The notes below the pieces were generated by a model. That model saw nothing but the letters and a program-made list of their open reading frames with translations, was not told where the DNA came from and searched no databases. From Candidatus Hydrogenedentota bacterium (lineage in GTDB: Bacteria; Hydrogenedentota; Hydrogenedentia; Hydrogenedentales; SLHB01): a DNA stretch of 64,000 nt. The stretch spans positions 1 through 64,000 of the forward strand of contig JAIBAQ010000001.1 in the NCBI GenBank assembly GCA_019695095.1. Direction: 5' to 3'. Of this stretch, positions 114 to 52,909 are shown piece by piece. A program made the translations under genes and the position numbers. Position 1 is the first letter of the stretch; each line of letters starts with the position of its first letter.

Positions 114-192
114 CTCATGGCATAACCGCAACTTCTAGCACGTGAGCAATTTGCGTCGGCGCTCTATCGCGCCCATGCAAATTGTGGATTAT
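114..192 (+). repeat. Dispersed structured repeat, copy A (short form)
   Basis: Contains the family signature CTCATGGCATAACC, then GCACGTGAGCAATTTGCG, a GC-rich middle and a closing CAAATTG arm, so the right half can fold as a hairpin (long subtype, as in the copy at 33721-33912). It lacks the large hairpin module of the full copies. Its CTCATGG end faces, 9 bp away, the start codon of the minus-strand gene at 1-104. Confidence 0.75.
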
Positions 193-3468: not shown

Positions 3469-4914
3469 ATGTTGAGCACAGAACGAAGGAAAAGAGAAGA
3501 AGGAGGAGGTCGTCTAGCGATGCGTAGAATCCACCCGTTCACCGGCGTCGGCATGATACGGTTCGTGGCAGTATGTCTGCTGTTCATGGCCGTTGTGGCT
3601 GGACCCATGATTGCGTTTGCCCAGGAAGCTCCGCCCGCGGAGGCGGCCGCGGCTGAGGCCGCGCCTGCGCCGACAATTGACAGCGGCGATACGGCATGGT
3701 TGCTAACGTCGACTGCGCTCGTCCTATTCATGACAATACCCGGTCTGTCGCTATTCTACGGAGGCTTGGTCCGGACAAAGAACGTGTTGTCCGTTCTGAT
3801 GCAGTGTTTCGCGATTACGGCCCTCGTGACTGTGCTTTGGGTCATCTATGGCTATACGATGGCTTTTGATACGACCGGCATGGCGAAGGGTGTCATGAAT
3901 CTGAATTCGCTTGTCGGTGGATTCTCCAAGCTCTTCATGAAGGGCATTGACGCAAGCAGCGTGACGCTGACGATCCCGGAAACCGTATTTGCCTGTTTCC
4001 AGTTGACCTTCGCGATCATTACTCCCGCCCTTATCGTGGGGGCATTCGCCGAACGCATGAAGTTCTCCGCGGTCCTCGTCTTCACGACGCTGTGGTTCAC
4101 CTTTGTCTACGTACCAATTTGTCATATGGTGTGGGCAGGTGACGGGTCTCTTATAGGCAGCCACTGGGGCGTGCTTGATTTCGCGGGTGGCACAGTCGTC
4201 CACATCAACGCCGGTATTGCGGCACTGGTCTCCTGTATTCTGATAGGCAAACGGCTGGGTTATCCGACGACGCCGATGGCTCCGCACAATATGACCATGA
4301 CTGTGACTGGCGCCGGTATGCTATGGGTCGGCTGGTTCGGGTTCAATGCGGGTAGCGCGGTCGCCGCAAACGGCTCCGCAGGCATGGCGATGCTGGTCAC
4401 TCAGACCGCTACTGCGATGGCGGCACTCACCTGGATGTTCATTGAATGGTTCAAGCACGGTAAGCCGAGCGCGTTGGGTACAGTCACTGGCGCGGTCGCA
4501 GGGCTGGTAGCCATCACTCCTGCTTCGGGTACCGTTGGCCCGCTGGGCGCACTGGCAATTGGGTTTGCCGTGTCTGTCATCTGCTTCTTCGCGGCAACCA
4601 CCATGAAGCGCGCACTGGGATACGACGACTCTCTTGACGCCTTCGGCGTGCACGGAGTTGGCGGGTTTGTGGGCGCGGTGCTGACCGGCGTGTTCGCGTC
4701 CGACGCTTTGGGCGGTCAGGTTGCCGGCCTCAATATCGGTTCGCAGGTAGTCGCCCAGTTGATGGGTGCCGGCCTTACCATCGTGTACTGCGGAATCGTG
4801 AGTGCGGTCATACTGAAAGTCGTGGACCTTATCATCGGTTTGCGCGTGGACGAGCAGGAAGAGACCCAGGGTCTCGATCTTACGCTCCACAACGAAGCTG
4901 GTTACAATCTCTAG
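3469..4914 (+). CDS. amtB: Ammonium transporter AmtB
   Basis: 481 residues. An N-terminal signal-type segment (MIRFVAVCLLFMAVVAGPMIAFA, in two runs) is followed by an Ala/Pro/Glu linker and about 11 membrane helices. The pore twin-histidine positions are visible in GGTVVHINAGIAA and DAFGVHGVGGFVGA, and FYGGLVRTKN and the aromatic gate surroundings are typical. It conducts ammonium across the inner membrane as a trimer blocked by PII. Two starts have good ribosome sites: the ATG at 3469 (AAGGAGGAGTT before it) and an ATG at 3520 (GGAGGAGGTCGTC before it). The latter gives a signal peptide nearer the N-terminus. The C-terminal tail is short, and a terminator follows. Confidence 0.95.
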   Translation: MLSTERRKREEGGGRLAMRRIHPFTGVGMIRFVAVCLLFMAVVAGPMIAFAQEAPPAEAAAAEAAPAPTIDSGDTAWLLTSTALVLFMTIPGLSLFYGGLVRTKNVLSVLMQCFAITALVTVLWVIYGYTMAFDTTGMAKGVMNLNSLVGGFSKLFMKGIDASSVTLTIPETVFACFQLTFAIITPALIVGAFAERMKFSAVLVFTTLWFTFVYVPICHMVWAGDGSLIGSHWGVLDFAGGTVVHINAGIAALVSCILIGKRLGYPTTPMAPHNMTMTVTGAGMLWVGWFGFNAGSAVAANGSAGMAMLVTQTATAMAALTWMFIEWFKHGKPSALGTVTGAVAGLVAITPASGTVGPLGALAIGFAVSVICFFAATTMKRALGYDDSLDAFGVHGVGGFVGAVLTGVFASDALGGQVAGLNIGSQVVAQLMGAGLTIVYCGIVSAVILKVVDLIIGLRVDEQEETQGLDLTLHNEAGYNL

Positions 4915-5852: not shown

Positions 5853-6338
5853 GGTAGGGGCTAGGGTTTAGGGTTTGGGGTCTGGCGAGTTGCGTTTGAG
5901 GCTCGTGCCGGTGAGGGCGTGGTTGTGTCTTCTCGGACCATCAATGCCCAATTCGTACTACAACCAGTCATTTTCTTTGTTTTTTCGCAGAAGTTGGTCT
6001 CCAATACGATTCATTTCCGTCTCTTCAAAATATGGACTCGTCCGCAGTTCCCCGTGCTCCCAGTGTTCCCCGTGGTTTGAAGTCATTCGAGCCTGATTGT
6101 TCCTTTTATCGGAGTTCATCGGAGTTCATCTGTGGTTGAGTTCCGTTTGGTTACGGCTATGCTGCGCTGTGAAACTCGCAGCCAACACAAAGTATCACGG
6201 CATTACCTCAGAGTCTTGCACGTGAGTGTATCGAAGAATAACCTTCTGCGGCGTCAACACCCAAAGACGAGAGACATCAGAACTCGATAGAGACCAATAG
6301 CCTGCGGTTTGTCAATCCCAGACCCCAGACCCCAAACC
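5853..6338. repeat. Gene-free repeat island bounded by a 17-bp inverted repeat
   Basis: TAGGGTTTGGGGTCTGG at 5869-5885 is exactly inverted at 6325-6341, the right copy running 3 bp into the end of the next gene. Inside are a tandem ATCGGAGTTC (6108-6127), a stretch (about 6030-6095) that matches 17120-17165 (CCCGTGGTTTGAAGTCATTC against CCCTTGGTTTGAAATCATAT), and a partial copy of the structured repeat (6195-6226). No believable ORF. Genes on both sides converge here. Confidence 0.65.
6195..6226 (+). repeat. Dispersed structured repeat, partial copy E
   Basis: ATCACGGCATTACCTCAGAG followed by TCTTGCACGTGAG matches the first half of the family (CTCATGGCATAACCTCAAGA, TCTTGCACGTGAG). The palindromic half is missing, so this is a truncated or decayed copy. 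Confidence 0.6.
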
Positions 6339-9856: not shown

Positions 9857-9918
9857 GCCCGCAAGTTGCGCCGGCGCAAATTGCCCACGTGCAAGACGCT
9901 GAGGTAGTGCCTTGAGGG
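9857..9918 (-). repeat. Dispersed structured repeat, copy D (short form, short palindrome)
   Basis: Read on the minus strand it gives CCTCAAGGCACTACCTCAGC, TCTTGCACGTGGGCAATTTG, CGCCGGCGCAACTTGCGGG, the same order as the copy at 52813-52873. The palindrome GCAATTTGCGCCGGCGCAA can form a tight hairpin, which might also act as a transcription barrier between the HDOD gene and cysS. Confidence 0.7.
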
Positions 9919-33711: not shown

Positions 33712-33720
33712 GAACCATAT

Positions 33721-33912
33721 AGTCCGCAATTTGCACCGGCGCGATTGAGCGCCGACGCAAATTGCTCACGTGCATGACTTTGAGGCTATGCCATGAGGAT
33801 TTCTCGCGAACACACACTGTCTTCGGAGAACCTCTCTGTTTTTCGCCATAAGTCTCGAAAGCACAATGCTTACGAGATAGGTTCAAGTGTGTTCGTGAGA
33901 AATCCGGGATAG
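33721..33912 (+). repeat. Dispersed structured repeat, copy C (full length), directly before an MFS gene
   Basis: Read in the direction of the following gene it shows: a palindrome (GCAATTTGCACCGGCGCGAT to GCCGACGCAAATTGC, 33726-33764); a linker with CACGTGCATGACTTTGAGG and CTATGCCATGA; then a 19-bp near-perfect inverted repeat GGATTTCTCGCGAACACAC (33797-33815) with GTGTGTTCGTGAGAAATCC (33887-33905). The loop between holds CTTCGGAGAACC and an inner TCTCG...CGAGA stem (about 33852-33876). It ends 11 bp before the MFS start codon. The same architecture occurs inverted at 52702-52873. Confidence 0.85.
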
Positions 33913-52684: not shown

Positions 52685-52701
52685 GCGGAGTCCTCCCTGG
52701 A

Positions 52702-52873
52702 TAGTCCGGATTTCTCACGAACACTTAACTTGTCTCGTAACCAGAGCGTTTGCGAGACTTGCGGTCAAAGACTAGGCGGTTCTCCGCAAACGGAACGAGT
52801 TCGCGAGAAATCCTCATGGCATAACCTCAAGATCTTGCACGTGAGCAATTTGCGCCGGCGCAAATTGCGGGAT
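52702..52873 (-). repeat. Dispersed structured repeat, copy B (full length), directly before the propeller gene
   Basis: Read on the minus strand towards the propeller gene: short palindrome GCAATTTGCGCCGGCGCAAA (about 52846-52869), CACGTGCAAGATCTTGAGG and TTATGCCATGA linker, then GGATTTCTCGCGAAC (52813-52799) paired with GTTCGTGAGAAATCC (52722-52708), loop with TTGCGGAGAACCGCC and inner TCTCG/CGAGA stem. Layout, spacing and asymmetric CGCG/CGTG hairpin arms agree with copy C at 33721-33912. Confidence 0.85.
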
Positions 52874-52909
52874 TGTGGCACACGAGCGTCGAGAATCAGG
52901 ACGGGCCCT

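What the first reader, a model, noticed from the sequence alone, without database searches (positions are those of the whole stretch)
33721..33912. A 190-bp two-hairpin element sits right before an MFS gene and again, inverted, before a propeller gene
The full copies at 33721-33912 and 52702-52873 keep the same order in gene direction: palindrome, CACGTGCA linker, 15-19-bp hairpin GGATTTCTCGCGAAC / GTTCGTGAGAAATCC enclosing a conserved loop (CGGAGAACC, AAGTCTCG, TACGAGA inner stem), then 11 or 18 bp to the start codon. Both MFS and propeller genes lack another clear ribosome site nearby. Position, polarity and a G-U-compatible asymmetry kept in both copies suggest a cis-acting leader RNA or a mobile promoter cassette rather than a random repeat. 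The loop sequences differ around the conserved blocks, as expected of a structure under selection.
Basis: partly seen in the sequence, partly recalled or inferred. Interest (0 to 1): 0.85.

Follow-up and report, generated by a model that had tools for sequence, protein, structure and literature searches.

The report
Two-hairpin jumping repeat favouring stop codons
The 190-bp repeat is one of roughly 150-200 copies of a small jumping DNA element without genes of its own; it inserts at NTAG/NTAA sequences, often exactly on a gene's stop codon, and relatives with the same two-hairpin design but different stem sequences occur in other members of this bacterial phylum.

Summary
The genome holds roughly 150-200 copies, mostly 165-190 bp, each flanked by a 4-bp target-site duplication NTAR. 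Orthologous empty sites in sister species of a related genus confirm insertion, so this is a non-autonomous transposable element (MITE), not a leader RNA.

Anatomy: NTAR | YCCGC-hairpin 1-CTC | ~30-nt linker | GAGG-hairpin 2-CCGGR | NTAR. Relatives in two other genera of the family and in another family of the order (probably Hydrogenedentota) keep this plan; stem sequences differ but pairing is compensated. Single-hairpin forms with the same tips also carry the duplication.

In a third of copies (30 of 90) the left duplication is the in-frame stop codon of the upstream gene; about 11% was expected. Between co-directional genes, sense orientation outnumbers antisense (20:3 in an unbiased 1.26-Mb sample). 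Distance to the downstream start codon is not fixed.

The 39-aa ORF across hairpin 2 shows no coding selection. No promoter was found, and neither strand's RNA fold is consistently favoured. The mobilising transposase was not found: the RAYT, IS1380 and IS701 loci checked lack matching ends. Movement by a DDE enzyme acting in trans is inferred.

The parts
33719..33722 (+). Copy A: left target-site duplication ATAG
   Evidence: identical to the right copy 33909-33912
33723..33908 (+). Copy A: element body, 186 bp, TCCGCAATTTGC ... GAGAAATCCGGG
   Evidence: alignment of 32 copies and nhmmer scan
33726..33765 (+). Copy A hairpin 1 (GCAATTTGCACCGGCGC / GCGCCGACGCAAATTGC)
33766..33796 (+). Copy A conserved linker (TCACGTGCATGACTTTGAGGCTATGCCATGA)
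   Evidence: near-invariant over 32 copies; layout kept in other genera
33797..33905 (+). Copy A hairpin 2 (arms GGATTTCTCGCGAACACAC / GTGTGTTCGTGAGAAATCC)
   Evidence: compensating changes between genera
33793..33912 (+). Copy A: 39-codon open frame across hairpin 2, chance by-product of the founder sequence
   Evidence: no coding selection
33909..33912 (+). Copy A: right target-site duplication ATAG
52705..52871 (-). Copy B: element body, 167 bp, with a 16-bp deletion in hairpin 1 relative to the consensus
52872..52875 (-). Copy B: left flank CAAT, decayed partner of right flank CTAT
52701..52704 (-). Copy B: right flank CTAT
52708..52813 (-). Copy B hairpin 2
52845..52868 (-). Copy B hairpin 1 (GCAATTTGCGCCGGCGCAAATTGC)
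114..190 (-). Left-half-only copy (hairpin 1 and linker)
   Evidence: nhmmer score 69.8, model 2-78
9857..9917 (+). Left-half-only copy (hairpin 1 and linker)
6195..6226 (-). Linker fragment

Best explanation
It is a non-autonomous DNA transposon (MITE) with short terminal inverted repeats (tips YCCGSA) and two subterminal hairpins joined by a linker. Shown: copies insert into a 4-bp site NTAR that is duplicated; the element lies in the orientation in which the site reads TAR; in this genome about a third of copies sit on the stop codon of the upstream gene, whose frame is kept because the left copy of the duplication remains the stop. Inferred: a transposase supplied in trans (most likely a DDE enzyme cutting with a 4-bp stagger) recognises the ends; insertions inside genes are purged, stop-codon insertions are tolerated and perhaps preferred. 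The hairpins probably persist because they are needed for movement, or because they make the transcribed copy harmless. Regulation of single neighbouring genes is possible but secondary.
For: High copy number with a gradient of divergence. 4-bp duplication measured over 84 copies: the base before TA agrees on both sides in 71% (28% expected), the base after TA in 79% (52% expected), no clear excess further out; CTGG, CGAG and TTAA sites duplicated too. The same duplications in g5, g10 and g34. Precise empty sites in sister species for L116, L110 and L278. Stop codon at the left end in 30 of 90 copies, 2 and 1 in the two other frames, expected about 11%. Same layout with compensated stems in other genera. 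Single-hairpin forms and tandem copies with the same duplication.
Against: No autonomous element or transposase with these ends was found. Tips shared between families are very short for a classical TIR, and the stems diverge fully, which is odd for sequence-specific recognition. About 29% of copies have different first bases in the two duplications (decay, or movement without perfect duplication).
Confidence: 0.87

Rival explanations
1. Cis-acting leader RNA (riboswitch or similar) controlling the downstream gene.
For: Compensating stem changes; sense bias between co-directional genes; layout conserved across genera.
Against: Distance to start codons -1 to 622 bp; 14 of 94 copies lie between convergent genes; a third abut the upstream stop codon; no Rfam match; roughly 150-200 near-identical copies; antisense folds as stable as sense in g1, g5 and g10.
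Confidence: 0.04
2. REPIN/BIME-type doublet spread by a RAYT (Y1 HUH) transposase.
For: Two palindromic units in inverted arrangement, TAGNCCG[C/G]AT-hairpin; Y1_Tnp genes present in carriers.
Against: RAYT loci of this genome carry their own, different repeats and not these hairpins; HUH transposition is not known to duplicate the target, yet a 4-bp duplication and matching empty sites are present; the GTAG tag of REPs is not fixed.
Confidence: 0.04
3. A MITE that has been taken up by the host as a functional 3'-end or intercistronic element (message stabiliser, partial terminator) at many stop codons.
For: Stop-codon enrichment 2.7-fold per site over neighbouring sense TAR sites; orientation bias of 20:3 against target-site odds of 52:48; hairpins kept by compensation. 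ERIC is a precedent for orientation-dependent effects on messages (PMC2229807).
Against: Tolerance after insertion explains much of it; no U tract after the hairpins; decayed copies abound; no expression data.
Confidence: 0.2
4. A gene for a 39-aa peptide carried by the repeat.
For: ATG in 70 of 78 copies, open frame in 52 of 78, GAGG upstream.
Against: 172 synonymous and 467 nonsynonymous changes against 184 and 455 expected without selection; equal divergence at the three codon positions; stops in good copies; frame not kept in other genera.
Confidence: 0.02

Closest known systems
Bacterial MITEs: Correia/NEMIS, RUP, ERIC (review PMC2229807)
   Same: 100-200 bp, non-coding, short terminal inverted repeats, TA at the termini, target duplication, strongly folded transcripts, high copy number, mostly outside genes
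   Different: Those are described as a single stem formed by their two ends; here there are two separate hairpins and a linker, a 4-bp NTAR duplication and a marked association with stop codons
CIR (CerM-associated intergenic repeats) of Caulobacter and Brucella (PMC2229807)
   Same: Two long inverted repeats forming two arms joined by a linker, TA at the termini
   Different: Target duplication of CIR is given as unknown and it has no terminal inverted repeat; other lineage; sequences not compared here
IS5-type elements with YTAR target (IS5, PMC10359306; IS711, PMC2266754)
   Same: YTAR is the target motif; IS5 insertion is accompanied by the TSD motif YTAR, as in most g5, g10 and g34 copies here
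   Different: In this genome the first base is free (NTAR); no IS5-like transposase with these ends was found in the carriers tested
REPIN/BIME with RAYT (PMC3116915)
   Same: Paired inverted palindromic units at high copy number outside genes
   Different: Target-site duplication present; not linked to the RAYT genes examined

Membership tests
MITE (non-autonomous TIR element) | Short, non-coding, many dispersed copies | tested here: met
MITE (non-autonomous TIR element) | Terminal inverted repeats | tested here: met
   YCCG...CGGR tips in all groups, longer (about 15 bp) in G058 and in single-hairpin forms
MITE (non-autonomous TIR element) | Target-site duplication and precise empty sites | tested here: met
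MITE (non-autonomous TIR element) | Ends shared with an autonomous element that encodes the transposase | tested here: inconclusive
   none found in partial searches of draft assemblies
IS5-derived MITE | YTAR 4-bp target duplication | tested here: inconclusive
   NTAR in g1; mostly YTAR in g5, g10 and g34
IS5-derived MITE | IS5-family transposase with the same ends | tested here: inconclusive
   DDE_Tnp_1 genes in G000, G004 and G020 lack the ends and G009 has no such gene; other IS5-type profiles were not searched
REPIN/RAYT | RAYT gene flanked by the same palindromes | tested here: not met
REPIN/RAYT | No target-site duplication (single-strand HUH mechanism) | tested here: not met
   4-bp duplication
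Cis-regulatory leader RNA | Constant position relative to the start codon of the regulated gene | tested here: not met
   -1 to 622 bp
Cis-regulatory leader RNA | Match to a described RNA family | tested here: not met
   no Rfam match in the window
Cis-regulatory leader RNA | Covarying secondary structure | tested here: met
   does not separate RNA from a DNA palindrome
CIR | Two arms with a linker and a GANTC motif in a loop | not tested
   only the two-arm plan was compared, from PMC2229807

The most novel reading that the evidence does not exclude
A phylum-wide family of mobile elements whose movement machinery actively prefers stop codons and recognises its DNA by hairpin structure, since the subterminal stems change sequence between genera while pairing and layout stay. 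This would be a safe-site strategy for a DNA transposon, perhaps tied to transcription or translation termination.
Probability: 0.2. Interest if true: 0.65.

Novelty: new variant of a known kind. Interest (0 to 1): 0.42.

Why it matters
It shows how a DNA parasite can reach roughly 150-200 copies in a gene-dense genome: it lands on NTAG/NTAA, keeps the stop codon and leaves the protein intact. The family spans several genera and at least two families of an uncultured phylum with a constant two-hairpin plan and changing stem sequences. That makes it testable whether a transposase can select structure rather than sequence, and whether such 3'-end insertions alter operon expression. It also warns against reading repeated, structured, compensated hairpins upstream of genes as riboswitches.

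Tried and rejected
Riboswitch or leader RNA: no Rfam match, no fixed spacing. Peptide gene: no coding selection. RAYT/REPIN: the Y1 loci read lack the hairpins. IS1380 as parent: L168 has CCGGATTTCTC about 65 bp outside the probable end of the IS (TTTTTCTAGG); relatives in G030 share that IS end and not the MITE end, so this is probably an IS beside a MITE relic. IS701 in G004 (L171): its ends are CCTAGTCCTACAACGCT. Exact-end searches for a longer element gave coding coincidences, variant MITEs and single-hairpin forms. The single exact 19-mer hit in a public planctomycete contig is about what chance gives in 257 Gb and was not pursued. Strand-specific RNA folding: no consistent sense advantage in g1, g5 and g10, though all 14 g34 copies fold better in sense. 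Organism names are hidden; Hydrogenedentota is a guess from 68 held genomes that form one order and the whole phylum.

Full report
Checking the observation. Copies A (33719-33912, +) and B (52875-52701, -) are real and share palindrome, linker and long hairpin in the same order. The genome search shows that they belong to a large family: 40 scored copies out of 191 candidates, 235 arm matches against 6 for a reversed control pattern, and in an unbiased 1.26-Mb sample 52 clusters, about 32 of them near full length, which scales to roughly 170 in 6.77 Mb. The window also carries three partial copies. Two details of the finding fail. The distance to the start codon is not conserved (-1 to 622 bp over 65 copies), and the propeller gene has a good GGGAGG site of its own outside the element. 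The neighbours themselves are as described: MFS_1 and a Reg_prop propeller.

Ends and duplication. Aligning copies with their flanks defines the body as YCCGC...CCGGR and shows 4 bp repeated on both sides. Over 84 copies the base before TA agrees between the two sides in 71% (28% expected) and the base after TA in 79% (52% expected), with no clear excess further out; rarer sites such as CTGG, CGAG and TTAA are duplicated as well. The same holds elsewhere: 4 of 5 g10 copies and most g5 copies read have identical 4-mers, and so do 11 of 16 two-ended copies of G042, in another family.

Empty sites. Flanks of g5 and g10 copies, joined without the element, were searched in sister species. L116 (G004, TTAT) is empty in G020 (...GCGGATAGTTAC|CTGTCC), L110 (G020, TTAG) is empty in G004 (...TTGCGCATTAG|CGAACC, with an unrelated 43-bp difference nearby), and L278 (G020) is empty in G004. 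Element plus one 4-bp copy is what was added. This settles insertion for the family; for G000 itself no same-genus genome was held.

Stop codons. With home-made codon-usage gene calls, 30 of 94 copies have the left TAR exactly as stop codon of the upstream gene, against 10.7% expected from all TAR sites outside genes (p about 2e-8). A frame test agrees: in 30 of 90 copies a coding-like open frame of 155-628 codons ends exactly in the duplicated TAR, while only 2 and 1 copies have such a frame in the other two phases. Stop codons are used 2.7 times more per site than sense TAR sites in the 60 bp behind them (p=0.006). Because TAR lies in the duplicated target, the stop was there before insertion and genes are not truncated. 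TAR reads along the element strand in nearly all copies, which explains why left-end stops (30) outnumber right-end stops (5). Tolerance explains much of this; active preference is possible and not shown.

Orientation. Between co-directional genes, sense copies outnumber antisense ones: 45:12 in the selected set, 26:10 without stop-codon copies (p=0.019), and 20:3 in the unbiased sample, while target sites predict 52:48. It may reflect selection on transcribed copies.

Structure across lineages. Relatives found with covariance models occur in genera g5 and g10 of the same family, in g34 of another family, and as one-stem elements in f10 genomes such as G058. The left-end 17-mer AGYCCGCATWTYTCACC occurs 63 times in G042 and 21 times in G058, with no control match in any genome. 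The stems differ in sequence: GGATTTCTCGCGAACACAC in g1, GGATTTCTCACACGCACA in g5, GGATTTTTCACGCGAACAGC in g10, GGATAAATCACGGGCT in g34, each with its complement on the other side. Over g1, g5 and g10, 94.2% of cells pair, 7 of 19 pairs change on both sides, and slid controls reach at most 63.7%. A DNA palindrome kept for movement would give the same pattern, and in g1, g5 and g10 both strands fold about equally well, so this is not evidence for an RNA function.

Building blocks. G042 and G009 carry single-hairpin elements with their own duplications, for example [CTAG]CCCGCATATTTCACC...GGTGAAATATGCGGG[CTAG] in L393 and [CTAT]CCCGGATTT...AAATCCGGG[CTAT] in L271. The two-hairpin element looks like two such units whose inner ends changed to CTC...GAG (inference). 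Tandem copies sharing one duplication occur in G042 (L331, L381).

What it is not. The 39-codon frame over hairpin 2 has 172 synonymous and 467 nonsynonymous changes against 184 and 455 expected, and stops in good copies. No sigma-70-like promoter was found in either window copy and no Rfam family. Transposase genes examined lack these ends; the parent is unknown, perhaps lost or collapsed in these draft assemblies.

Verdict. A MITE family with an unusual, conserved two-hairpin plan and a strong association with stop codons. Insertion, duplication and structure are shown. The enzyme, the role of the hairpins and any effect on genes are inferred. The IS5-like target (YTAR; PMC10359306, PMC2266754) is a lead, not a membership. 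My searches of the held paper library found no description of this family, but that library is partial.

Noticed in passing
L142 (G000:C43:34507-37404) and L153 (G000:C22:16919-20257): Y1/RAYT-like transposase genes (one with an internal TGA) that sit among their own, different short repeats (for example GCGCCCTGAAGGGGCG and GCCCTAGG...GGTAACC), a separate REP-type system in the same genome.
   Followed up: partly
L168/L172 (G020:C771): An IS1380-family transposase gene at a contig end with a relic of the MITE right end (CCGAGAAATCCGGG) about 65 bp beyond the probable IS end.
   Followed up: partly
L331, L381, L387 (G042): Head-to-tail tandem copies of the element spaced about 209 bp, sharing one 4-bp NTAR copy between them; possibly repeated insertion into the element's own target.
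   Followed up: no
L066, L063, L072, L082 (G000): About 140-bp variants in which part of the loop of hairpin 2 is missing while both stem arms and the right end are kept.
   Followed up: no
L210 (G000:C21:18084-18148): A minimal derivative: hairpin 1 joined directly to the terminal GAGAAATCCGGA and followed by CTAG.
   Followed up: no
window 33793-33912: A 39-codon open frame (MRISREHT...RNPG in consensus) with GAGG upstream and its stop in the right target-site copy, open in 52 of 78 copies yet without coding selection.
   Followed up: yes
G009, G004 and G020, many places: Flanks of several copies match tens of other places in the same genomes (query 4596-4686 and 1336-1518), so other unrelated high-copy repeat families are present.
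   Followed up: no
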